The position numbers and the translations under genes were made by a program. From the IMG/VR virus record IMGVR_UViG_3300044568_003467, positions 1 to 44,391 of that record: a DNA stretch of 44,391 nt; one strand, given 5' to 3'. The first letter of the stretch is position 1. Each line of letters starts with the position of its first letter. The stretch comes from a virus. Positions 25,574-38,724 of the stretch are shown here, piece by piece. Under the pieces are notes generated by a model. That model was not told the DNA's origin. It ran no database searches and saw nothing but the letters and a program-made list of their open reading frames with translations.

Positions 25574-28141
25574 ATGGCACAAGTTAATAGAATTTCTTCA
25601 TTTAAGAGCTTTACTGAGGTTAAGAATCAGGAGGCTACAATGAAACTAAGAGAAACAAACAATGCAAAAAGACAGGAAACTGTTGGTAAAATTGGAGCAA
25701 TCCTTGATGAAATGGGACTAACTTCTCTATCTGAATTGGATGAAGAGAAAAAACAAGCACTAATTAACAAAATGTTTGGGAATGTTTCAGAAGATGAAGC
25801 AGAAGATATTGAAGACGAACTTAATAAACTAGGAGAACCTGAAGAACTTGAAGAAGGAAATGCTTTTATTTATGCGGCTGCAAAGGCTAAAAATGCTGGA
25901 AAGAAAACGTTTCAGTTTAATGGTAAAACATATAAAGTAACTTTAAAAACTGATACAGGTCTTAAAGAAGGTAGTGAGTTTGGAGAAGATGAATTTGAAG
26001 TTGATGGAGAGACTTACGAAATTGAAGAGGCTAAAAGAACCAAATTTACTGGTAAAACCGCAAACGACCTATATACTCAAATTGGTGGAAAACCTGTAGA
26101 AGTTTTTATTGGAAATGATTGGTACTCAGTTAACCCTGCAGAATTAAAAGGTGACAAAGGTGATTCTTTTATAGGATATACTCAAGATGGTTCTGACCAT
26201 GAGTTCTATCTTAAAGATATTAGTTTTATACAAGAATCAGTAGAATCTATTGATGAAGCCCGTTCAATTGCTAAAATTCAATATGACTGGTCTAAACTGA
26301 CAACTTCAATGCAGGCTACCGCTCAAAATTGGAAAGCTGCCGAAGGGTCCGCCAAAGAAATGTTACTTGGAAAATTAAAAGAGATGACCGCTCAAAAGAA
26401 AGCCCTAGAAGCTGAATTGGATGCGACAATCGCTGATAAAGACAAAGACCTAGAATTAGTAGTTTCTGAAGCATTTAACCGATTACCAAAAGATGTTATT
26501 GGAAATGAATTATATTTAGCTTCAAAAAACTTAGCTAATTTCTATCAAAATACTTCAGCAGGTCGCGATATTGATACTGGCGTAATCGATACTATTATTA
26601 GAAACTTAGAAAAAGTTAAAAAATCTGTAAAGAAATTTAACAGTAAAGAAGAAGTTGCTGGAACTGTTTATGAAGGAGAAGTATTATTATTTGATGAAAT
26701 AGGAACGGAATTAGAAGCTCTTAAAAAGAAAATATCTGGCTTAATGAAAAGCGCAACAGATAAAAAATGGGTTTCAGCATTAGGTGCTGCTTCATCTGCA
26801 CTTTCTAACTTAGATAGAAATTTAAGTCAATCAGATTCTAAATTAGGAGCTATTATTACTGAAGCTAATCTATATGAAGCTAAAGCAAAAGACCTAAAAC
26901 CAAATCATAAATACACATCAGACTACGGTGAAGTTACATTCATCAAATTAAATCCTGATGGTAAAACTATGAAGTTGCATTCAAAAGAAACTGGAGAAAT
27001 TAAAACAGATATTTCAAATGCATACAATATGGAATTAATTGAATCAGTAGTTAATGAAGCTGAAAAGTTCAAAAGCACTAAAGATTTCATAGATTTCTTA
27101 GAGGAAATTGATGGTATGCCAGAGGTTAGAATCAAAAGAATCATGGGAGACGATTACATTGATACTCCAGGAGGTTTCAGAGATGAGGCAGATGATTACG
27201 ATAATGACATCGAAGAGTATACCCTTTCTAACATGGGTCGTAAAGAGTTTGATAAACTTAGAACATGGTGGGAAAACAATGTTCAAGAATCTTTAACTGA
27301 AGGTCAAGATCCAAGCGCAGAAAAAACAAGTAGAGCTGAACAATTAAAAAAATTAAAAGCCTTTAAAGCTCGCCAAGAAGAAACAGAAAAACTTAAAAAA
27401 CTACAAGCAAAAAGAGCTAAAGTTAATGAAGCTGAAGTTAGTTCTGATGATGAATTTAAAGAATATGCAATGGCTGTTTTGAAAAAAGCATTTGCTAATG
27501 ACTTTGATGAAGCAAAAGCTGGAGAAGTAGTTGATGGAATTCTTAAAAAATGTGGAGATGATTACGGAGCTGCAGTTGGAATGCTAACAAGTTCTCTTGG
27601 AGAATCAGCTACCAATGAAGCATTTGATGCAGATAAAAGAGTTGCTGAATTAGCTAAATTATTAAAGAAACAAAAATTTGTAGGGTCAGTATATCCAGAA
27701 GGAGATACAATTAAAGTGTTCGTAGATTCTGGTGATGTAGGAACTACAATGATGTGGGATGATGACGAACCTGGTAAAGTTAGAATGGAATGTGAAGACG
27801 ATTCATATTCAGAAACTATTGATGACACTAATGACGTAGTATTAAACTTCTTTTCAAATCTTGATGATTCAGTTGACGAATCAGTAGTTACTGAAGCATT
27901 TGATGCAAACTACTGGGAAGATTATCAAGATAAATCTCCAAAAATAACATCTGCATCTAAAGTAGCAAATGCTGTTGAAGATTGTGTTTGGGATTGGAAT
28001 GATAATAATGAAAATGGCAAAGAAAATGAAGTTAGTAAAGCTGGAGAACAGAAAGTAATGAACCTTGCCCATGATTTCTTTAAAGCAAAAGGATATATCT
28101 CATTTGATATTATTGATGCAATGATAGCTCAGGAATCTTAA
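25574..28141 (+). CDS. Mosaic internal-head-type protein with many putative prohead-protease sites
   Basis: This acidic 855-residue protein begins MAQVNRISSFKSFTEVKNQEA, which contains a CTS-like F-K-S-F-T-E block. Sites of the form hydrophobic-x-E-(A/G) recur at about residues 151-153 (EEA), 226-229 (IDEA), 297-300 (VSEA), 428-431 (ITEA), 493-496 (VNEA), 574-577 (LTEG), 617-620 (VNEA), 680-683 (TNEA) and 772-775 (VTEA), often preceded by ES-V-V or ES. They split it into compact segments of roughly 40-130 residues: helical (243-300, 310-425), beta-rich (432-490, 684-770) and highly charged (577-617). T4 gp21 protease cuts after (L/I)-x-E, so I infer a packaged polyprotein or scaffold-core component. 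No enzyme motif is recognised. It is followed by its own terminator. Confidence 0.6.
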   Translation: MAQVNRISSFKSFTEVKNQEATMKLRETNNAKRQETVGKIGAILDEMGLTSLSELDEEKKQALINKMFGNVSEDEAEDIEDELNKLGEPEELEEGNAFIYAAAKAKNAGKKTFQFNGKTYKVTLKTDTGLKEGSEFGEDEFEVDGETYEIEEAKRTKFTGKTANDLYTQIGGKPVEVFIGNDWYSVNPAELKGDKGDSFIGYTQDGSDHEFYLKDISFIQESVESIDEARSIAKIQYDWSKLTTSMQATAQNWKAAEGSAKEMLLGKLKEMTAQKKALEAELDATIADKDKDLELVVSEAFNRLPKDVIGNELYLASKNLANFYQNTSAGRDIDTGVIDTIIRNLEKVKKSVKKFNSKEEVAGTVYEGEVLLFDEIGTELEALKKKISGLMKSATDKKWVSALGAASSALSNLDRNLSQSDSKLGAIITEANLYEAKAKDLKPNHKYTSDYGEVTFIKLNPDGKTMKLHSKETGEIKTDISNAYNMELIESVVNEAEKFKSTKDFIDFLEEIDGMPEVRIKRIMGDDYIDTPGGFRDEADDYDNDIEEYTLSNMGRKEFDKLRTWWENNVQESLTEGQDPSAEKTSRAEQLKKLKAFKARQEETEKLKKLQAKRAKVNEAEVSSDDEFKEYAMAVLKKAFANDFDEAKAGEVVDGILKKCGDDYGAAVGMLTSSLGESATNEAFDADKRVAELAKLLKKQKFVGSVYPEGDTIKVFVDSGDVGTTMMWDDDEPGKVRMECEDDSYSETIDDTNDVVLNFFSNLDDSVDESVVTEAFDANYWEDYQDKSPKITSASKVANAVEDCVWDWNDNNENGKENEVSKAGEQKVMNLAHDFFKAKGYISFDIIDAMIAQES

Positions 28142-28158
28142 AAATAATCTAAATAAAT

Positions 28159-28190
28159 AATACCTGATGTTTTACCATGTCAGGTATTTT
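28159..28190 (+). terminator. Rho-independent terminator after the 855-residue mosaic gene
   Basis: AATACCTGA (28159-28167) pairs with TCAGGTATT (28180-28188) around a 12-base loop, followed by a short T-rich run. Confidence 0.8.
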
Positions 28191-28205: not shown

Positions 28206-28655
28206 ATGAAGCATATTAAACTATACGAAGAATTTCTTAACGAAGGTGTTAGCAATATTACTGCATATCATACTTCCGGTACTAAAATTTCTTCTTTTAA
28301 ACCTGCTTCTGTTTGGGTAACAACAAACCTTGAGTTTGCTAAAGCGTACCAAGACAATGCAATTGATGAAGGTCGAGATGCATATACATATGAAATAAGA
28401 GTTTCAGGAAACATACTTACACAAGATGCAGCAAGTGAGTTATCAGAAACATTAGGAATAGATTTTGAAGATTTAATTGCAGATCTTACGGGTAATCCTG
28501 ATGTAAAAGAACGTACACTGTTAATTAAACCTTTTATTGGAAAGTGTGATGGTTTTTTTCACTGGGATTACGATCCAAGAGACTGGGGCGATGGAGAATC
28601 TTTATTAGTTTTTAACCCTGCAAAACATGCAAAAATAATAAAACAAATATATTAA
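28206..28655 (+). CDS. CTS-tagged ADP-ribosyltransferase-like protein
   Basis: The start is placed at ATG 28206 (149 residues) because MKHIKLYEEFLNE then aligns with the start of several neighbours; an upstream ATG at 28167 lies inside the terminator. After this CTS-like leader, ITAYHTS (18-24), VWVTTNLEFAKAYQDNA (36-52), YTYEIRVSGNIL and ESLLVFNPAKHAKII (131-145) follow the layout of small ADP-ribosyltransferase-like domains: YHTS strand, FxT-x-x-x-x-A-x-x-Y helix, and a late Glu before a (V/F)(F/N)P strand. His22, Thr39/40 and Glu131 would be the H-(Y/T)-E equivalents. T4 Alt is an ADP-ribosyltransferase packaged through a CTS and injected to modify host RNA polymerase; this may be an analogue. 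The ART call is by pattern and moderate. Confidence 0.5.
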   Translation: MKHIKLYEEFLNEGVSNITAYHTSGTKISSFKPASVWVTTNLEFAKAYQDNAIDEGRDAYTYEIRVSGNILTQDAASELSETLGIDFEDLIADLTGNPDVKERTLLIKPFIGKCDGFFHWDYDPRDWGDGESLLVFNPAKHAKIIKQIY

Positions 28656-28656
28656 A

Positions 28657-28929
28657 ATGAAACATATAAAACTATTCGAAAATTTTATTAATGAATCAGC
28701 ATATTCAGAAAGAAAAACAGCCCTGTCGATTAAACAAACAACACTGTCTAATAAAAGAAAAGAACTATCAAATAAAATAAGTGAGCTAAATAAAAAACCA
28801 AGAACTCCAAAAATCGCGTTACAAATTCAAATTGCAAATCTTAAAATTGCTGCTTCGGATCTTGAACTTAAAAAATTAAAATTGGATTTTAACATACTTG
28901 ATTTAAGTAACAAAATGAGCAATCTATAA
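28657..28929 (+). CDS. CTS-tagged small coiled-coil protein
   Basis: This is a 90-residue protein, one base after the previous stop. The CTS-like leader MKHIKLFENFINES (1-14) is followed by a Lys/Leu/Ser-rich helix with heptad spacing (about 20-90; KQTTLSNKRKELSNKISELN and LKIAASDLELKKLKLDFNIL). The short PRTPK break suggests a helical hairpin. The net charge is strongly basic, a property shared with DNA-compacting internal head proteins. I do not recognise a family. The identical leader and tight packing in the CTS-gene run argue that it is real and packaged with them. Confidence 0.6.
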   Translation: MKHIKLFENFINESAYSERKTALSIKQTTLSNKRKELSNKISELNKKPRTPKIALQIQIANLKIAASDLELKKLKLDFNILDLSNKMSNL

Positions 28930-28931
28930 AT

Positions 28932-30221
28932 ATGAAAACAAGAATCCTTAATTTTAGCCGTTTCATAACTGAAAAATACGAAACCAAACTAAATGAGAAG
29001 TTGTTATTAGAAGGTGGAGCGGCTGGACATATGTCCCATCCATTCGATAATAATGACCTAACATTTGGAGACTTCAAGAATATGATTATTGGTGGACTTC
29101 AAGGAGAATTAAACTTCGAAGAGGAGCCTACTGAAAAAACAGATGGTCAAAACGTATTTGCAACTATTCAAAATGGCGAGGTAAAATTTGCCAGAAATAA
29201 AACTGAGTTGCAAAACCCTATGAGCCTATCAGATTTTCAAAACAAATTTGAGGGACATGCTAGCAAACTGGTACAAGATACTTTTCAATTTGCAGCTGCT
29301 GATTTAGCAACCCTGCTTATAAAGTTACCGGTAGAGACTCAAGACGAAGTGTTCCAGAATGGCCTAAACTTCATGAACATGGAGTTGATATATTCTGCGA
29401 ATCCTAACGTTATTCACTATGATGTTGATGTAATTCAATTCCATGGTATCAAGAAGACTGATGGTGCTGGAAATATAGTTGGAGATGACAATAGTGCGGC
29501 AAAAAGTGTTAGTGGAGTACTTAAATCCTTAAACGCTAATGTTGGAAAAACATTTACAATTATCCCTCCTCAGGTTATTAAACTACAAAAAGACATAAAC
29601 TTTGAAGAGAATCAGACCAAATTCTTAGGAAAACTTGAAGCTCTTAAAAATCGTTATAATTTAACCGATGCTGATGCGGTTGCTCGCTACCATGAAATGT
29701 GGTGGAGAGAACAAATTGAAAACTTATTCGGTGACCTACCACAAAATATCAAAGAGGGTCTATTACTTAGATGGGCTTACGATGACAAGAAAACATTAAA
29801 CCTTCGTTCATTGGACAAAGAATTAAGTGCATCACAATCAGAAGCCGTTAAGAAGTTTGATAAAGAAGACGTTAAAAAGAAATTCAAAGAAAACATTCGA
29901 CCATTTGAAGACCTTTTCTTAGAATTGGGAAGTGTTATCTTAAAGAATGCAAGTAATTTTGTTGCTGCTTCGCCAGACAAAGAAATGCAAAGGCTACATA
30001 CTGAAATCCGAACCGAAGCCGACAAGATTAAACTTAATGGAGATGTAACTCAAATCGAAAAGGTTGCAAAAGAACTTGACCGATTAGAGAGAATTGGAGG
30101 AATCCAATCTATTATACCGACTGAAGGTATTGTATTCTCATACAAAGGACATATGTACAAATTAACAGGAACATTCGCTGCAATTAATCAATTAATGGGA
30201 ATCATAAAATACGGAAGATAA
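28932..30221 (+). CDS. CTS-tagged nucleotidyltransferase/ligase-like protein (DUF6267-like)
   Basis: This is a 429-residue protein. The leader MKTRILNFSRFITE plus LNE (20-22) and LLLEGGAAG (24-32) give CTS-like and possible cleavage sites. The body then starts HMSHPFDNNDLTFGDFKNMI, which I associate with the phage family DUF6267. Covalent nucleotidyltransferase motifs are visible: motif I K69-T-D-G in EPTEKTDGQNVFATI, an Arg at FARNK (88), motif III NMELIY (149-154), motif IV EGIVFSYKG (398-406) and motif V YKLTG (409-413). An ATP-dependent RNA or DNA ligase-type adenylation reaction is therefore likely. No OB-fold C-terminal domain is obvious. The stop overlaps the next ATG (TAATG), pairing it with the ligase-NMNAT fusion. 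Confidence 0.65.
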   Translation: MKTRILNFSRFITEKYETKLNEKLLLEGGAAGHMSHPFDNNDLTFGDFKNMIIGGLQGELNFEEEPTEKTDGQNVFATIQNGEVKFARNKTELQNPMSLSDFQNKFEGHASKLVQDTFQFAAADLATLLIKLPVETQDEVFQNGLNFMNMELIYSANPNVIHYDVDVIQFHGIKKTDGAGNIVGDDNSAAKSVSGVLKSLNANVGKTFTIIPPQVIKLQKDINFEENQTKFLGKLEALKNRYNLTDADAVARYHEMWWREQIENLFGDLPQNIKEGLLLRWAYDDKKTLNLRSLDKELSASQSEAVKKFDKEDVKKKFKENIRPFEDLFLELGSVILKNASNFVAASPDKEMQRLHTEIRTEADKIKLNGDVTQIEKVAKELDRLERIGGIQSIIPTEGIVFSYKGHMYKLTGTFAAINQLMGIIKYGR

Positions 30222-32092
30222 TGGCATTACAGAAATTAAGAGAGTATTTTAACGAAACCAATAGAGAAACCTTTATTGAAATGTTAAAAAATAGGGTGTT
30301 AGTAACTGAGAAAGTTTCTGCACCTACATTTCTTGTTAAAAGAAATCTTGATGGATTTGAATATTTTAAATCTTCAAATTCAGACAAATTAAATCTAGTT
30401 GACCGAACTATTATCTCCCTATATGAGATTGCAATCAACTACATGCAAAGTTTGCCAAGTGAAACTAAAGGTCAAATGCCAATCGATTGGAGATTTGGAT
30501 TTGAATACCTTCCGGAAGTTAATGTATCTAAAATTAAATACATCAAAACTCCAAAAAATAATCTAATCTTAACCCATATCCAACAGCTTGGAGAAGGTAA
30601 TAAGGTTAAGAAAACTATAAATGACCCAGTTATCCTAAATAAATGGGCAAAAATTCTTGATGTTCAACAGCCAAGCGTAATTTTTGATGGCTATTTATCT
30701 CAATTACAACGGGATGAATTACTTGAAGTACTTGGAATGAGCGATAGAGAATTTAGCGAATCATTTGACTATTTGCCGGAAACAAAAGACAAGAATAGTT
30801 TTACTAGTAAAATAGTTAAACTTTTTAACAATAGTGCTTTTGAAACTGCCTTAAATTCTGACATTGAAGACGAATTTGATGGATTAGTTGTTAATTTTAT
30901 TGATGAAAAATCTATTAAATCTTTTAAATTAGAGGACTTTATCCGAAAAACTGCAGTTGATAACTCTTCAAGTCACATGTATCAAATTGCAGTCACTGAC
31001 TTCTTAGAATTTATAACTCAATTTAAAATTGATGAAGTACAATTGGAAGATGAAAGAGCCGATTATAGATACCTTGAAATAATGTCGATTATATTTAATG
31101 AATATGTTGACAAAAACTCTTCAAAATATATTGGAGTTAATTTTGAAAGTGCTGAATTTTCATCAGCCCAATCTTTTAAATTAAACTCAAAATATATTAC
31201 TGATGAAAAAACCTTAAAATATGTTTCTAACGATATTTTAGCAGAACTTTTTAAAATGATTTTAGGTTCTTTTAGAAAGAAGCGAACAAAAACATCAGAC
31301 TTAATAGATGAGGACACTATGGAACGTTTAAATGAAATAATTGAAAAAATCAACGAGAAAATATTTATTGAAAACACTGATGAAAATTCAATTTATGACT
31401 ATCAAAATTTTATGTTGCGTGATAGGATTAAATCTTCAGTTAACTTAAATGAGGCACTTAAACTTGACCATGTTGAACAAGGAAAACAACCAGTAAATAT
31501 GTTTGTTGGGCGATTCCAACCATTTACACTGGGACATGCAAAGGTTTTAGAGACTATACATAAGGAGAATGGTTATCCAGTTGTTGTATTCCTTGTTAAA
31601 GCAAAAACCAAAAAGAAAGGTGATGAATTTAGCAGACCATACGATGAGAAAACCCAAATCGAAATGTTTAAAAACGTTCAAAAACAATATCCATTCCTAA
31701 AAGAAATATTTGTTATTCCAACTGGAGGTATTGATGTTATGTTTAATGAAATGAGACCTAAATACGAACCAGTACTTTGGGGAACGGGAAGTGATCGAAT
31801 GACAAGTTACGGTTATCAAGTAAACAACGATGCATATAGAGACCAATTAAACTGTAGAGCTGATTTTGGACTTTTTGAAATTCCAAGAAATGACGACGAT
31901 ATTTCAGCTACTGCAGTTAGAAATGCCTTATTAGATGGTGATGAAAAACTATTTAACAATCTAACACCAAAGGCAGTTCATGGAATGTACAATGAACTAA
32001 AATCTAAAATTGAAGATTCTATGGGAGTTGTTGCTGAAGGATTTACCAATGATATTATGACATTCGAACAATTTATTAATAAAGATATATAA
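30221..32092 (+). CDS. Fusion of ligase-like domain and NMN adenylyltransferase (NadM-like)
   Basis: This is a 623-residue protein. The N-terminal part looks like a second RNA-ligase-type nucleotidyltransferase: TEKVSAPTFLVKR (29-41, motif I Lys31 but without the usual x-D-G), DWRFGFEYL (89-97, motif III-like), FDGLVVNF (219-226, motif IV) and SFKLEDF (234-240, motif V). A helical linker ends with VNLNEA at 407-412, a possible protease site. The C-terminal domain has GRFQPFTLGHAKVL (430-443; the H-x-G-H-type nucleotide-binding motif) and ISATAVRNAL (561-570; the IS-x-T-x-x-R motif), typical of NadM/NMNAT enzymes making NAD from NMN and ATP. The extreme C-terminus (MTFEQFINKDI) resembles a CTS. 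It is translationally coupled to the preceding ligase-like gene. Confidence 0.7.
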   Translation: MALQKLREYFNETNRETFIEMLKNRVLVTEKVSAPTFLVKRNLDGFEYFKSSNSDKLNLVDRTIISLYEIAINYMQSLPSETKGQMPIDWRFGFEYLPEVNVSKIKYIKTPKNNLILTHIQQLGEGNKVKKTINDPVILNKWAKILDVQQPSVIFDGYLSQLQRDELLEVLGMSDREFSESFDYLPETKDKNSFTSKIVKLFNNSAFETALNSDIEDEFDGLVVNFIDEKSIKSFKLEDFIRKTAVDNSSSHMYQIAVTDFLEFITQFKIDEVQLEDERADYRYLEIMSIIFNEYVDKNSSKYIGVNFESAEFSSAQSFKLNSKYITDEKTLKYVSNDILAELFKMILGSFRKKRTKTSDLIDEDTMERLNEIIEKINEKIFIENTDENSIYDYQNFMLRDRIKSSVNLNEALKLDHVEQGKQPVNMFVGRFQPFTLGHAKVLETIHKENGYPVVVFLVKAKTKKKGDEFSRPYDEKTQIEMFKNVQKQYPFLKEIFVIPTGGIDVMFNEMRPKYEPVLWGTGSDRMTSYGYQVNNDAYRDQLNCRADFGLFEIPRNDDDISATAVRNALLDGDEKLFNNLTPKAVHGMYNELKSKIEDSMGVVAEGFTNDIMTFEQFINKDI

Positions 32093-32116: not shown

Positions 32117-34711
32117 ATGAATTTTAATCAATTCTTAAATGAAAATACTTCATCGTATGGTGGAAGAGCAGGACTTACTAAAGATGAGACACTTAAAATT
32201 GCTCAAAAATTTGCAGATGCCGCCGCTAGTGTAGACCCTGAAAAGGGAAAATGGAGCGTAAATAAAAGAACCTTAGAGGAAGATGGTTTTGACTTAGACT
32301 ACAATAGTGAGGAATTTGACGGTGGTTCATATAACATTTACAAAAATGGTAATGTTGTAAATATGGCTCTTCGTGAAAATCCAGTTTTAGGCAAAGTAGA
32401 TGACGATATTAAAACTATTGCAAAAGGTTTTAAAAAAATGATGGCAAATGAATCAACAATTACTGAAGAATACGATGTTAGTGGACTTTCAAGAGAAGAA
32501 CTTAAGGATGCAATTGATTACTTAAAAGCACACGATATTTCACACGACTATGATGGGCGTGAAGATATTCTATATTTTGACATGACAGAATTGGACAAAA
32601 AAGGCCAAGAACAAATGAAAAAATTGGGTCTTAGTGAATCAGTAGTTAATGAAACTGGATTTAAAAAATCTGACATTAAAAAAACTATCGACTTTATTAA
32701 TAAAGAAATTGGAATTGATCCAGGATATGCTCTAATCGGAGACGAGGATGATATTGAAGAATTTGATAAACTTTGGGATCGTGGAGATTATGAAGATGCA
32801 TTTGATTTTTTAACAGTTGCAACAAACATGGAAATTTCAACATTTGCCGATGTTAAAGATGCTATTAAAGAATCTGTTGTTAATGAAAGAAATATCACAA
32901 TCAAAAGACAATATACTGATAAAAGTCCTGCAGTTACTGTAGGTAAAGCTGCTAAAGTTCGTAACCGAATGCTAGAAGCTATTAAAGATGGTAAAGTTTC
33001 ACAAGAAGATTTTAATAATATTCTTAAAGAAATGACCACAGATTCTAAAAGATGGTTGAGAAGAAACGCTCAGTGTTTTAACGTATCTGAAGATGGTATT
33101 AGTCTATCAAAAACAGGTTCAAGAATCCTTAAAAATGTTATGGTTTCAGAAGCCACAACAAAGGCACCAAAGATTTGGGTTCCTGGAGGATTTGATAAAG
33201 CCATTGCAAAATACCCAAATAGTAAAATCACAAGAAAAATAGTATTAGATGCGGCACTTAAATGGGATGTAAATCCAGAAGACGCTATCAAGTACGTTGA
33301 ATACGCTTGGGCGGTTGACTTAGATGAAAATAAAAACACAAATGATATGAAAACAAAATTTATTTACGAATCTTTCCAAGAATTCGTTGAAAACCGATTA
33401 AACGAAGCAGCTTCTTTAAATAAAATTAAAAGTTTAATTCCCGAAGTAGACTTTGAAGAACAAGAAATAGAATTTGATCCAGCAGAAGGTTACAAATCAG
33501 TAGAGAGCTACTCATTTGAAATTTCTGGACTTAGTGAACCGGCTTACATAAACATTTATGACGGAAATAGCTTTTGTTTTTTCTATGATTCGGCTCCTAT
33601 AGCAGTATCTCTTCATTCTGCTAGAGAAAGAAATGAAATGGCACAACAACAAATTGAGATTCCTAAGCCACTTGGTAAATTAAACAAAAAAATCTATGAT
33701 GAAGCAATTGCTGAAATCAAAGAATGGATAGGAGAAAGTTTTGTAAATGTTACACTAAATGAGGCATTTAAAAGTGCTAAACTGGCTAACCTTTTCTCAG
33801 TAGGAAGTGCAGGTACTAAAGACCTTGCAGGAGCATTCTATACTTTTTCAAAACTGGCACTTGACCAAATTGAAGATTATGACATTATTGAAATGGATCC
33901 TCAAACTGCCCGAAAAGAAAAAAGAGCAAATGCAATTTACTTTTACGTAGTAACTAACCAAAAAGAGAACCCATATATTCAAGGTAGCATTCCAAATATT
34001 TACAATAATGGAATTATCCAATCAAATACCCTATTAGCAATAACTAATGGACAAAATGAATGGTATTCTACCGGATATAATAGATACTCAAAAACTGAAA
34101 CTATATCAAAAGCAAGTTCAAGAGAAGATGCTGCTGGATTTGATAAAAGAGACAGTAAAAGATATGACGGTTCAGGAATTACCAGTATTACAAAAGTAGC
34201 TGAATTAGCTGATATTGCATATGTTATTGACTTAGACGTTCTTAAATCGCGATATTCTACAACTCAATTAACATTACAAAGAGCTAATGATAAAAGAGGA
34301 GCTACTATTTTTATGAGTGACAAAGACTTTAAAGCAGAAAACAAATCTAGATATAACCAAATCTTAGCACAAAAAGCATCTGCAATGCCAATGGACACAG
34401 TAGTTCTAGGAGCTATTGATACTCTAGCTACTCAAATTAAAGATGCACTATCTAAAGGTGAAAAAGGAAGATATGGAGAACTTATTGTTGGACTAGACCC
34501 TAAAGGTAGAGAAATCAAAATGAACGATGCTGCAAATTTAATGAGAAATATTCTTGATGAATATAACAGATACGTGGGATACGTTGTTGAAACTGAAAAA
34601 GAAATTGCATCCGGATATAATGGAAAATGGGCTGAAGGTAGATTAAAAGATAGTTCTAAAACAATCGTTGATTACGTTAAGAAAGTAGAAGCTAAAAATT
34701 ACGCTTGGTAA
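32117..34711 (+). CDS. Mosaic CTS protein with internal CTS copy (putative packaged polyprotein)
   Basis: This is an 864-residue protein. The leader MNFNQFLNEN is CTS-like. Putative protease sites follow at 114-117 (TITEE), 174-180 (ESVVNET), 252-258 (ESVVNER), 342-346 (MVSEA) and 546-550 (TLNEA). At 411-431 there is a complete second leader, M-K-T-K-F-I-Y-E-S-F-Q-E-F-V-E ending RLNEA, with its own ATG at 33347. The protein therefore looks like at least two originally separate CTS genes joined in frame. Segment 120-175 (SREELKDAIDYLKAHDISHDY) and 258-340 are small helical domains. The 551-864 segment is a larger alpha/beta domain with NIYNNGIIQSNTLLAITN and YGELIVGLDPKGREIKM, which I do not recognise. 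Confidence 0.6.
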   Translation: MNFNQFLNENTSSYGGRAGLTKDETLKIAQKFADAAASVDPEKGKWSVNKRTLEEDGFDLDYNSEEFDGGSYNIYKNGNVVNMALRENPVLGKVDDDIKTIAKGFKKMMANESTITEEYDVSGLSREELKDAIDYLKAHDISHDYDGREDILYFDMTELDKKGQEQMKKLGLSESVVNETGFKKSDIKKTIDFINKEIGIDPGYALIGDEDDIEEFDKLWDRGDYEDAFDFLTVATNMEISTFADVKDAIKESVVNERNITIKRQYTDKSPAVTVGKAAKVRNRMLEAIKDGKVSQEDFNNILKEMTTDSKRWLRRNAQCFNVSEDGISLSKTGSRILKNVMVSEATTKAPKIWVPGGFDKAIAKYPNSKITRKIVLDAALKWDVNPEDAIKYVEYAWAVDLDENKNTNDMKTKFIYESFQEFVENRLNEAASLNKIKSLIPEVDFEEQEIEFDPAEGYKSVESYSFEISGLSEPAYINIYDGNSFCFFYDSAPIAVSLHSARERNEMAQQQIEIPKPLGKLNKKIYDEAIAEIKEWIGESFVNVTLNEAFKSAKLANLFSVGSAGTKDLAGAFYTFSKLALDQIEDYDIIEMDPQTARKEKRANAIYFYVVTNQKENPYIQGSIPNIYNNGIIQSNTLLAITNGQNEWYSTGYNRYSKTETISKASSREDAAGFDKRDSKRYDGSGITSITKVAELADIAYVIDLDVLKSRYSTTQLTLQRANDKRGATIFMSDKDFKAENKSRYNQILAQKASAMPMDTVVLGAIDTLATQIKDALSKGEKGRYGELIVGLDPKGREIKMNDAANLMRNILDEYNRYVGYVVETEKEIASGYNGKWAEGRLKDSSKTIVDYVKKVEAKNYAW

Positions 34712-34712
34712 G

Positions 34713-35060
34713 ATGAAACATATTAAACTATTTGAACAGTTTGTTAATGAAAAGATAGAATATCCAGAAGGTGTTAAAACCACGGATGATAAAATACTTG
34801 ACAAGGTGGCTAAACTATTAAATTCTTCTAAAGGCATAATCGAAATAGGTTCTGGCTCTGTTAGAGGTAAAAAAGTTCCGTTTCAAACTGGTGAGGCAAA
34901 CTTTAATATAACTGGACATAGAGAGTATTACGTTCTTCTTTGTAGTAAAGGAGAATTTGAAATTCCTAGAGAAGATATTAAAAATGCCCAAGAGCTATAC
35001 GATCAAATTGAAAAGGCTATTCAAATGGGAAAAGTAACAATAGGAAAACAAAGATCATGA
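34713..35060 (+). CDS. CTS-tagged small protein, unknown function
   Basis: This is a 115-residue protein, one base after the preceding stop. The leader MKHIKLFEQFVNEK (1-14) differs from that at 28657 at only a few positions. The remainder has a mixed alpha/beta pattern (IEIGSGSVRGKKVPFQTGEA, then REYYVLLCSKGEFEIPREDI and a C-terminal amphipathic helix) with no recognised catalytic residues. The stop overlaps the start of the next gene (ATGATG/TGA), so the two are likely translated together. Membership in the packaged-protein set is inferred from the leader. Confidence 0.6.
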   Translation: MKHIKLFEQFVNEKIEYPEGVKTTDDKILDKVAKLLNSSKGIIEIGSGSVRGKKVPFQTGEANFNITGHREYYVLLCSKGEFEIPREDIKNAQELYDQIEKAIQMGKVTIGKQRS

Positions 35061-35569
35061 TGAAACATATACCTACATTCGAAAGTTTTGTAAATGAATC
35101 CCTAAACGAAGGATGGGGATTTGATGACATTAAAGAAATCCATTTTGAAACTGATCCTGATAAACAAGAAAAACTTAAAAGGGTTTACGGTAAAAAAACT
35201 GGAGCAATGTCTTATAAGTCTCAAATCGAGGCCGCCGACTATGCACTAACTAAGTATAGAAAAGAAATTGGATATGACAATGGTAAGTCAGGTAGCACAG
35301 GTCTTACTGATGTATTTATTCCAAGTTCATCTATGGCCGCATTTTCTACAACCGGCAATGGACCACATTCTAAGCCTAAAAGATGGAACAAAAAGGAATA
35401 TGACAAATGGATTAAAGACATGTCAGGAGACGGTGGTGCAAACCACGCATACGATATGGCGCAAAACGCTAAATTTGAACCAGGTCTTATTGATTGGGTT
35501 AAGAAAAATGTAGCGTATGGCGAAAAACCATTAGACAGAATTCAATGGGATATCGAAGCCTATTCATAA
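35057..35569 (+). CDS. CTS-tagged protein, unknown function
   Basis: This is a 170-residue protein; ATG at 35057 or the adjacent 35060 can serve as the start. The leader MMKHIPTFESFVNESLNEG contains two consecutive candidate cleavage sites (VNE|S and LNE|G). The body is polar and aromatic with GWGFDDIKEIHFETDPDKQ, a helix with YALTKYRKEIG, a Gly/Ser-rich loop (NGKSGSTGLTD) and a C-terminal segment rich in Trp, Asp and Lys. It resembles small secreted or packaged globular proteins, but I cannot place it in a family. It lies in the middle of the CTS-gene run. Confidence 0.6.
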   Translation: MMKHIPTFESFVNESLNEGWGFDDIKEIHFETDPDKQEKLKRVYGKKTGAMSYKSQIEAADYALTKYRKEIGYDNGKSGSTGLTDVFIPSSSMAAFSTTGNGPHSKPKRWNKKEYDKWIKDMSGDGGANHAYDMAQNAKFEPGLIDWVKKNVAYGEKPLDRIQWDIEAYS

Positions 35570-35574
35570 ATAAG

Positions 35575-35805
35575 ATGGAAAACTATATACCTACATTTGC
35601 TGAATTCTTAAACGAAGAAAAGTCAATATCTAATCTATCTAGTCGAGATGAAAAACCGATGATTTATGGAATCGCTGAAATAATCAATAGAGTAAAAGAC
35701 CCAGTTAATAAAAAGGAAATGGTAGAAGCTTCTATTGAAGATTTTAAGAAAGAAGGAATTGAATTTAATTATGATGAATTTAGAAACATATGTAAAGTAA
35801 AATAA
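35575..35805 (+). CDS. CTS-tagged small protein, unknown function
   Basis: I place the start at ATG 35575 (76 residues), five bases after the preceding stop. The ATG at 35545 would lie inside the previous gene, whereas 35575 gives the leader MENYIPTFAEFLNEEK, matching the family pattern. The rest is a short helical domain (PMIYGIAEIINRVKDPVNKKEMVEASIEDFKKEGIEF) ending in NYDEFRNICKVK. This resembles the small helical modules inside the mosaic proteins. No catalytic motif is visible. Confidence 0.6.
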   Translation: MENYIPTFAEFLNEEKSISNLSSRDEKPMIYGIAEIINRVKDPVNKKEMVEASIEDFKKEGIEFNYDEFRNICKVK

Positions 35806-37299: not shown

Positions 37300-38724
37300 A
37301 TGGAATTTATAGACGCATTAAGACAAGAAGATATAGTAACTGAAAATGGAATGGCGACAAATTCGACATCATTGAATGCTTGTGTTGACCTTTTCTTTAA
37401 CATTGGAGCTATGAGAGGACAGGACAAGCAACGTTTGATTGCTACTTTCTCTAAAGCATTTAATGAAGACCCAAAGCGCGCTATGAAACTTCTTTTTTGG
37501 GCTAGAGATGTTCGAGGTGGAGCTGGAGAACGTCAAGTTTTCAAAGACATTTTAGCTTATTTGGCAGAAAACCACGACTTGGTACTTAAACCAAACTTAC
37601 ATTTAATTTCAGAGTACGGACGTTGGGATGACTTACTAGTCTTGACAGGAACATATCTTGAAAAGCAAGCATTCACCTTAATTTCAGATGCTTTAATTGC
37701 TGAAAATGGATTATGCGCAAAATGGATGCCACGTAAAGGACCAATAGCTGAAAAGTTACGTAAATTTACTGGAATGTCTCCAAAACAATACAGAAAATCT
37801 CTTGTAGGTTTAACTAATGTTGTTGAAACTAAAATGTGTGCTAAAGATTGGAATTCTATCGATTTCGGTAAATTACCATCAGTAGCTTCTGCACGTTACC
37901 AAAAAGCATTTGGTAAAAATGCATACGAAAGTTATTCAGCGTATATTGCTTCTCTTGTAAAAGGTGAGGCTAAGATTAATGCAGGTGCAGTTTATCCTTA
38001 TGACATTATAACATCATTACAACATGGAAATGCAGCAATAGCAAACGAACAATGGAAAGCCTTGCCAAACTATTTGGAAGGTGCAAATGATATGATTTTA
38101 CCAGTAGTAGACGTTTCAGGTTCTATGTCAAGTCCAGCTGGTGGAAGTAAAACTGTAACTTGTATGAATGTTGCAATCTCATTAGGTCTCTATATTTCCG
38201 AAAGAAATGAAGGTCCTTTTAAAGATGCATTTATTACATTCTCAAGTAAACCACAGTTACAAGTATTAAGTGGCTCACTGAATGATCGCTACACACAGAT
38301 GTCAGACTCTGATTGGGGAATGTCAACAGATCTTGAGGCTACATTCAAACTGATCCTAGATCAGGCCACTAAGCACAAATTATCGCAAGATAAAATGCCA
38401 AACAAAATCCTAATCCTATCGGATATGGAGTTTAACATGGCAACAGCAAAACGTTATGGAATAGAAAGTGGATGGAATCCAACTGCACAGCAGATGATTG
38501 AAACTATGTATGCCGATGCAGGTTACAAGGTACCTCAAATTGTTTACTGGAACATTCAATCCCGAAACGGAGGAGTACCAGTTGCATTTGATGCTAAAGG
38601 AACTGCACTGGTTTCAGGATTCTCTCCAGCGATTATGACAAGTTTACTTGGAGGAGATATTGAATCTCCACAACAAATAATGGATAAAACAATTTTGAGC
38701 GAGAGATACGCTCCAGTTGTTTAA
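37300..38724 (+). CDS. DUF2828 / Ro60(TROVE)-like vWA protein
   Basis: This is a 474-residue protein. The N-terminal half is helical-repeat-like (GMATNSTSLNACVDLFFNIG, GQDKQRLIATFSKAF, AMKLLFWARDVRGGAGERQVF, SEYGRWDDLL), the pattern of DUF2828 and of the related TROVE ring of Ro60. The C-terminal half is a von Willebrand A domain with a complete MIDAS: DVSGSMS at 271-277, Thr343 in GMSTDLEATF and Asp375 in LILSDMEF. Ro60 binds misfolded small RNAs and Y RNAs in its central hole; RNA binding here is inferred from the family relation. About 320 bp without a convincing gene follow directly and could encode an RNA partner. A preceding 91-residue gene is probably in the same operon. Confidence 0.75.
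   Translation: MEFIDALRQEDIVTENGMATNSTSLNACVDLFFNIGAMRGQDKQRLIATFSKAFNEDPKRAMKLLFWARDVRGGAGERQVFKDILAYLAENHDLVLKPNLHLISEYGRWDDLLVLTGTYLEKQAFTLISDALIAENGLCAKWMPRKGPIAEKLRKFTGMSPKQYRKSLVGLTNVVETKMCAKDWNSIDFGKLPSVASARYQKAFGKNAYESYSAYIASLVKGEAKINAGAVYPYDIITSLQHGNAAIANEQWKALPNYLEGANDMILPVVDVSGSMSSPAGGSKTVTCMNVAISLGLYISERNEGPFKDAFITFSSKPQLQVLSGSLNDRYTQMSDSDWGMSTDLEATFKLILDQATKHKLSQDKMPNKILILSDMEFNMATAKRYGIESGWNPTAQQMIETMYADAGYKVPQIVYWNIQSRNGGVPVAFDAKGTALVSGFSPAIMTSLLGGDIESPQQIMDKTILSERYAPVV

What the first reader, a model, noticed from the sequence alone, without database searches (positions are those of the whole stretch)
28206..28655. CTS-tagged ADP-ribosyltransferase-like protein, a possible analogue of T4 Alt
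After a leader almost identical to its neighbours, the protein shows the YHTS / VTT..FAKAYQDNA / ESLLVFNP order of small ART domains. T4 packages Alt, an ADP-ribosyltransferase, through a CTS and injects it to modify host RNA polymerase. A tiny independent version in a distant phage would show the same strategy with a different enzyme.
Basis: partly seen in the sequence, partly recalled or inferred. Interest (0 to 1): 0.75.

Follow-up and report, generated by a model that had tools for sequence, protein, structure and literature searches.

The report
Phage-head-packaged mini ADP-ribosyltransferase-like effector
This marine T4-like phage gene encodes a tiny protein with the fold of an ADP-ribosyltransferase behind a removable tag that in T4 sends proteins into the phage head, so it is probably injected into the bacterium with the phage DNA, as T4 does with its unrelated enzyme Alt.

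Summary
The ORF is real: 28206-28655 (+), 149 aa, with a 13-residue leader (MKHIKLYEEFLNE|G) nearly identical to leaders of neighbouring genes. Eleven of 36 window genes match a leader pattern (1.2 expected by shuffling). The leader fits T4 capsid-targeting sequences, including the L-x-E cleavage motif. A close relative of this phage encodes a T4-type prohead protease.

The remaining 136 aa match no database family directly. The trimmed AlphaFold model (pLDDT 74, one of five models) finds ART-PolyVal proteins (viral library, best E 2.9e-5, probability 1.00). A profile comparison with ART-PolyVal also exceeds all 600 shuffles. It resembles the H-Y-[EDQ] ART clade, not the R-S-E clade of T4 Alt.

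Corrections: His22 is Phe in one homologue; strand 2 has Trp instead of Tyr; the architecture is not unique. The best structural hit, Salmonella phage Mutine gp027 (149 aa, MKTFLEFYRE leader), has the same layout, with relatives in 225 phage records; LIMEstone1's copy was reported in virions (one peptide).

Close relatives of the window phage carry other payloads behind the same leader, so the ART is an exchangeable cassette. Catalysis, target and packaging remain untested.

The parts
28206..28655 (+). CTS-tagged ART-fold protein gene, 149 aa
   Evidence: fold
28206..28244 (+). Leader MKHIKLYEEFLNE (residues 1-13), candidate capsid-targeting sequence; predicted protease cleavage after E13 (L11-N12-E13 | G14)
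   Evidence: shared with neighbours; shared with unrelated proteins in L004-L011; L/I-X-E rule PMC9026906
28266..28277 (+). Y21-H22-T23-S24, strand-1 motif equivalent to YHG[ST] of ART-PolyVal; His is Phe in L003
28311..28349 (+). V36-W37-V38-T39-T40 ... A45-K46-A47-Y48, strand-2 plus helix motif equivalent to gFyFTd...A..Y; Trp in the usual Tyr position
   Evidence: Trp also seen in two accepted PF18760 members L068, L069
28545..28559 (+). C114-D115-G116-F117-F118, equivalent to YDG[VI] of ART-PolyVal
28596..28619 (+). E131-S132-L133-L134-V135-F136-N137-P138, strand-5 motif equivalent to xxxVVFxP; E131 is the candidate catalytic acid
28159..28188 (+). Hairpin followed by a U-run between the 855-aa gene and this gene (terminator-like); the spacer it lies in is identical in relatives L004, L005 and L006 up to the start codon (L011 has a short insertion just before it)
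   Evidence: (z -4.5)
28657..28929 (+). Neighbour with same leader (MKHIKLFENFINE|S), 90 aa; its homologue occupies the first slot in relative L006
28932..30221 (+). Leader-like gene (NFSRFITE), 429 aa, function unassigned
30221..32092 (+). Leader-like gene (LREYFNE), 623 aa, C-terminal nucleotidyltransferase domain closest to NMN adenylyltransferases
32117..34711 (+). Leader gene MNFNQFLNE|N, 864 aa, with five further [VILF][NT]E sites inside
34713..35805 (+). Three more small leader genes (34713-35060, 35057-35569, 35575-35805)

Best explanation
The gene makes a head-packaged, injected ART-fold effector. Steps: (1) the 13-residue leader targets the precursor to the prohead core, as T4 capsid-targeting sequences do (inferred from the resemblance of the signal); (2) a T4-type prohead protease cuts after Leu-Asn-Glu13, freeing a 136-aa domain (inferred; the motif, and the protease in relatives, are shown); (3) the domain leaves with the DNA into the new host (inferred; supported by a virion-detected protein of the same layout in LIMEstone1); (4) it binds NAD+ in the cleft of an H-Y-[EDQ]-type ADP-ribosyltransferase and transfers ADP-ribose to a host macromolecule early in infection (fold supported; activity and target inferred). 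The gene is an exchangeable payload placed behind a standing leader in one slot of a CTS array (shown by comparison of relatives).
For: Fold: trimmed-core AlphaFold2 pLDDT 74, pTM 0.64; Foldseek BFVD 10 hits at E<=0.001, best an ART-PolyVal-like protein of phage Mutine E 2.9e-5; PDB hits include a diphtheria-toxin homologue, NatT, PARP4 (not significant alone). Sequence: profile comparison with ART-PolyVal score 26.3 (0 of 1000 shuffles), 30.1 (0 of 500), 34.0 with the Ackermannviridae set (0 of 600, best shuffle 24.8); a true ART pair, Arr versus ART-PolyVal, scores about 29-31. Leader; L-x-E kept in window (LNE), L001 (LYE), L003 (LKE). Protease: Peptidase_S77 in G001 and in G010, and G010 is a close syntenic relative of the window; the G001 major head protein has a candidate LNE|G site near its N-terminus. 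Precedent: Mutine gp027 and LIMEstone1 ORF173; CTS rules PMC9026906; packaged ARTs common in myoviruses PMC9503650. Cassette.
Against: No direct Pfam, PHROG, NCBIfam or PDB sequence hit. Only one of five AlphaFold models was confident, and the full-length job was poor (pLDDT 50.5). His22 is Phe in L003; Tyr is Trp; the register of the catalytic acid is uncertain. Profile probability is 71% at best and the family was chosen after seeing the motifs. No data on virions of this phage. The window contig itself lacks the protease gene (fragment).
Confidence: 0.62

Rival explanations
1. ART-fold but catalytically dead or repurposed: a packaged NAD+/ADP-ribose-binding or protein-binding domain rather than a transferase.
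For: His to Phe in L003, Trp in place of Tyr in all three, HG[ST] changed to HTS, catalytic acid offset. The most conserved stretch is CDGFFHWDYDPRDWGDGES, which is not typical of ART-PolyVal and has low model confidence.
Against: His22 kept in window and L001; E131-S132 invariant; Trp is tolerated in accepted PF18760 members; one accepted domain, L064a, also lacks the His.
Confidence: 0.17
2. Packaged NAD+ glycohydrolase or NAD-pathway enzyme acting on small molecules, perhaps linked to the NMN adenylyltransferase-like protein of the same array and to NAD-based anti-phage defence.
For: The H-Y-[EDQ] and R-S-E clades include NADases (PMC9503650); NatT, an ART-fold toxin, is among weak PDB hits; NMNAT-like CTS protein at 30221-32092.
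Against: The ART homologues in G001/G002/G003 occur without a detectable PF01467 gene on those contigs, while relatives with the NMNAT-like gene lack the ART. Contigs are fragments.
Confidence: 0.1
3. An ART made and used inside the infected cell (like T4 ModA/ModB) that is not packaged; the shared leader has another role.
For: No virion data for this phage.
Against: Leader shared across unrelated payloads, ends in the protease motif in all homologues, and the same layout was detected in LIMEstone1 virions.
Confidence: 0.07
4. Not an ART; the motif resemblance and the fold match are a coincidence of a low-depth model.
For: Three-sequence alignment; single converged model; no family hit.
Against: Two lines (structure search and shuffled profile test) point to the same family, with the motifs in the same order.
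Confidence: 0.04

Closest known systems
Ackermannviridae mini-ART: Salmonella phage Mutine gp027 (AUG88162.1), Dickeya phage LIMEstone1 ORF173 (YP_007237495.1)
   Same: About 150 aa, CTS-like leader (MKTFLEFYRE, MKTFLQYLQE), single ART-PolyVal domain; best structural match; LIMEstone1 copy reported in virions (17.33 kDa, 11.84% coverage, 1 peptide, PMC3296691)
   Different: Passes PF18760; keeps HGS and FYLT; lies in a different gene context; pairwise profile similarity to the window protein is weak and limited to the N-terminal half
ART-PolyVal (PF18760), H-Y-D ARTs of polyvalent proteins, Tox-ART-HYD2 clade (PMC5512222)
   Same: Order of motifs YH..., xWVTT...A..Y, .DG, VF.P and predicted fold
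   Different: Below Pfam detection, stand-alone instead of part of a giant protein, Trp for Tyr, HTS for HG[ST]
T4 Alt (Alt/VIP2, R-S-E clade) and the T4 CTS internal proteins IPI-III
   Same: Delivery logic: short N-terminal propeptide ending in L/I-X-E, T4-type protease in relatives; Alt is also an ART
   Different: Different ART clade, far smaller, no sequence match
Arr (PF12120), rifampin ADP-ribosyltransferase
   Same: Similar V-[WY]-x-T ... A segment by eye
   Different: Profile comparison with Arr alone is at chance level

Membership tests
ART-PolyVal (PF18760) | Passes the curated score cut-off | tested here: not met
   No Pfam match for the window protein even at E<=10
ART-PolyVal (PF18760) | Detectable profile similarity in correct register | tested here: met
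   hhalign score 34.0, probability 71%, 0 of 600 column shuffles;
ART-PolyVal (PF18760) | ART fold | tested here: met
   Foldseek BFVD best hits ART-PolyVal-like, E 2.9e-5; model confidence moderate, one of five models
ART-PolyVal (PF18760) | Strand-1 His | tested here: inconclusive
   Present in window and L001, Phe in L003
ART-PolyVal (PF18760) | Strand-2 Tyr | tested here: not met
   Trp37 in all three; Trp also in accepted members L068, L069
ART-PolyVal (PF18760) | Strand-5 acidic residue or Gln | tested here: inconclusive
   E131 invariant but one position before the E/Q column; at the E131 column 6 of 18 members have D and one has E
T4 Alt/VIP2 (R-S-E clade) | R-S-E active site and family sequence match | tested here: not met
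   His at strand 1; no Pfam family matched; clade definition from PMC5512222
T4-type CTS internal protein | Short N-terminal leader ending in L/I-X-E | tested here: met
   LNE13 in window, LYE in L001, LKE in L003; rule from PMC9026906
T4-type CTS internal protein | T4-type prohead protease in the phage | tested here: inconclusive
   Peptidase_S77 in G001 and in close relative G010; not on the window contig, which is a fragment
T4-type CTS internal protein | Cleaved protein present in virions | not testable with these tools
   Only indirect: LIMEstone1 ORF173 in virions (PMC3296691)
Polyvalent protein | Several effector domains in one large polypeptide | tested here: not met
   Leader plus a single domain of 136 aa

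The most novel reading that the evidence does not exclude
Marine T4-like phages keep arrays of genes with one shared head-targeting leader, behind which payloads are exchanged at the leader sequence; mini-ARTs with an unusual H-W-E active site are one of the payloads, and the same delivery layout has arisen or spread independently of Alt in Ackermannviridae.
Probability: 0.4. Interest if true: 0.68.

Novelty: new variant of a known kind. Interest (0 to 1): 0.52.

Why it matters
If true, injected ADP-ribosylation in T4-related phages is not tied to the Alt enzyme: a small ART of a different clade uses the same packaging tag in at least two phage groups. The leader then becomes a practical search term for injected effectors in uncultured phages, and the Ackermannviridae relatives make the idea testable now with cultured phages.

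Tried and rejected
Direct family searches (Pfam, PHROGs, NCBIfam, PDB sequences) gave nothing. tblastn in cultured phages found no relative. The GTDB scan gave one short hit (L029) that proved to be a chance reading frame with stops. DNA-pattern scans found only the same three loci. The full-length AlphaFold job was too poor to use; a second job without the leader did better. Arr was tested as a relative and is at chance level. L040/L041 looked like distant relatives but are a deletion remnant joining the leader to SLLVFNPQ at a shared GAA. ART-PolyVal queries in viral contigs and plasmids gave few seeds. A coupling with the NMNAT-like neighbour was considered and is not supported by co-occurrence. 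Membership of the Alt family was rejected on active-site class. For the hhalign test ART-PolyVal was picked by me after reading the motifs; the Foldseek search was not steered in that way.

Full report
OBSERVATION. The open reading frame is real: ATG at 28206, 149 codons, stop at 28653-28655. Its first 13 residues, MKHIKLYEEFLNE, are nearly the same as those of neighbours at 28657, 34713 and 35057. A leader-like pattern is found in 11 of 36 window genes against 1.2 expected after shuffling N-termini (the pattern was chosen after looking). In the viral collection, eight further loci share only this leader and carry unrelated proteins, so the leader is modular.

HOMOLOGUES. Only three loci (two distinct sequences) share the payload: L001=L002 at 72% and L003 at about 50% identity. 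Alignment- and pattern-based re-scans found no more. E131 and S132 are invariant; H22 is Phe in L003. L003 carries a C-terminal zinc-ribbon-like tail. The window and G001 contigs share only this protein and one leader; window and G003 share only this protein. Contigs are fragments, so this is suggestive of gene exchange, not proof.

FOLD. Full-length prediction was poor (pLDDT 50.5). With the leader cut off, one of five models reached pLDDT 74 and pTM 0.64. Foldseek against viral models gave ten hits at E<=0.001, the best an ART-PolyVal-like protein of Salmonella phage Mutine (E 2.9e-5, probability 1.00), with further ART-PolyVal- or PARP-labelled proteins below it. Against the PDB nothing was significant, but a diphtheria-toxin homologue, a typhoid toxin chain, NatT and PARP4 are among the first twenty.

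PROFILE TEST. I collected ART-PolyVal domains from genomes, phages and plasmids. Of eleven sequences scanned with Pfam, ten pass the PF18760 cut-off and L042 falls just below it. The three-sequence core aligns with them starting exactly at YHTS on YHG[ST], then VWVTT...AKAY on gFyFTd...A..Y, CDGFF on YDGvi, and LLVFNPAK on VVFrPeQ. Scores: 26.3 (0 of 1000 column shuffles, best 21.8), 30.1 (0 of 500, best 29.6), and 34.0 after adding Ackermannviridae members (0 of 600, best 24.8). Among 186 proteins of these contigs the two ART homologues rank first as single sequences, though the third-ranked protein is close behind and L003 alone scores low. Arr versus ART-PolyVal, a true ART pair, scores 29-31. 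The test family was chosen after reading the motifs; the Foldseek search was not steered in that way.

ACTIVE SITE. The relevant clade has His, Tyr and an acidic residue or Gln (PMC5512222; PMC9503650). Here: H22 (Phe in L003); W37 for Tyr (Trp also in accepted members L068 and L069); and E131, five residues before the strand-5 Phe, where 6 of 18 members have Asp and one has Glu, while the other acidic column holds S132. Alt has R-S-E and belongs to a different clade. Activity is therefore plausible and unproven.

DELIVERY. T4 CTS leaders are about ten residues long and are cut after L/I-X-E; Alt is itself a packaged ART (PMC9026906). All three homologues end their leader in L-x-E a few residues before the domain, although L003's leader is otherwise different. 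The T4-type protease Peptidase_S77 is in G001 and G010. G010 holds L011, which is syntenic with the window and mostly about 90% identical, and has what read as portal-like and core-like head genes beside the protease (those two names rest on inspection only). The G001 major head protein carries a candidate LNE|G site.

PRECEDENT. Mutine gp027 is 149 aa, starts MKTFLEFYRESTLPDFTDIVLYHGS, and passes PF18760. Relatives occur in 225 phage records. The Dickeya phage LIMEstone1 copy, ORF173, is annotated as a confirmed structural protein and is listed with one peptide in the virion proteome (PMC3296691), as is its neighbour ORF174, which also begins with a CTS-like leader. I found no paper naming this CTS-plus-mini-ART layout; PMC9503650 reports that about 44% of phage ARTs sit in contexts suggesting packaging, with enrichment in myoviruses.

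CASSETTE EXCHANGE. In relatives L004, L005 and L006 the spacer upstream (including a terminator-like hairpin) is identical up to the start codon, and in L011 nearly so; the leader follows, but the slot holds a 158-aa, a 90-aa or a 182-aa protein instead. In L040/L041 the ART gene has shrunk to the leader plus SLLVFNPQ. So the ART is gained and lost as a payload. That T4-like phages vary their internal proteins behind CTS-like leaders is already discussed for T-even phages (PMC9026906).

VERDICT. An ART-fold protein with a head-targeting leader, very probably; a packaged and injected effector, probably; an active transferase on a host macromolecule, the leading guess. It is a divergent variant of a known theme.

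Noticed in passing
window 25574-28141 and 32117-34711: Large leader proteins carry repeated internal [VILF][NT]E sites (for example ESVVNEA); the array as a whole has 27 such sites against 5.7 expected, while nine control genes have 7 against 7.5 (pattern chosen after looking). They may be polyproteins cut at several places by the prohead protease.
   Followed up: partly
window 30221-32092: Leader-tagged protein with a C-terminal nucleotidyltransferase closest to NMN adenylyltransferases (TIGR01527 E 1.2e-7, below its cut-off); a possible packaged NAD enzyme. Close homologues are in relatives L004, L005, L006, L009, L011 and a more distant one in G008.
   Followed up: partly
L040 around 2743, L041 5001-5060: Remnant of the ART gene: leader joined directly to SLLVFNPQKNLHIVK then stop; junction at a shared GAA.
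   Followed up: yes
L003 8450-8627: C-terminal zinc-ribbon-like tail CDNCKWSW...CHKCDYDN on the ART homologue, absent from the other two.
   Followed up: no
window 37300-38724: Phage RNA-binding protein family (phrog_850, E 3e-154) just after the leader array; it looks like a Ro/TROVE-type protein (that name is from memory).
   Followed up: no
L079 1995-2453 (LIMEstone1 ORF174): Neighbour of the Ackermannviridae mini-ART, also reported in virions and starting MPTSKLFESE, another likely CTS protein.
   Followed up: no
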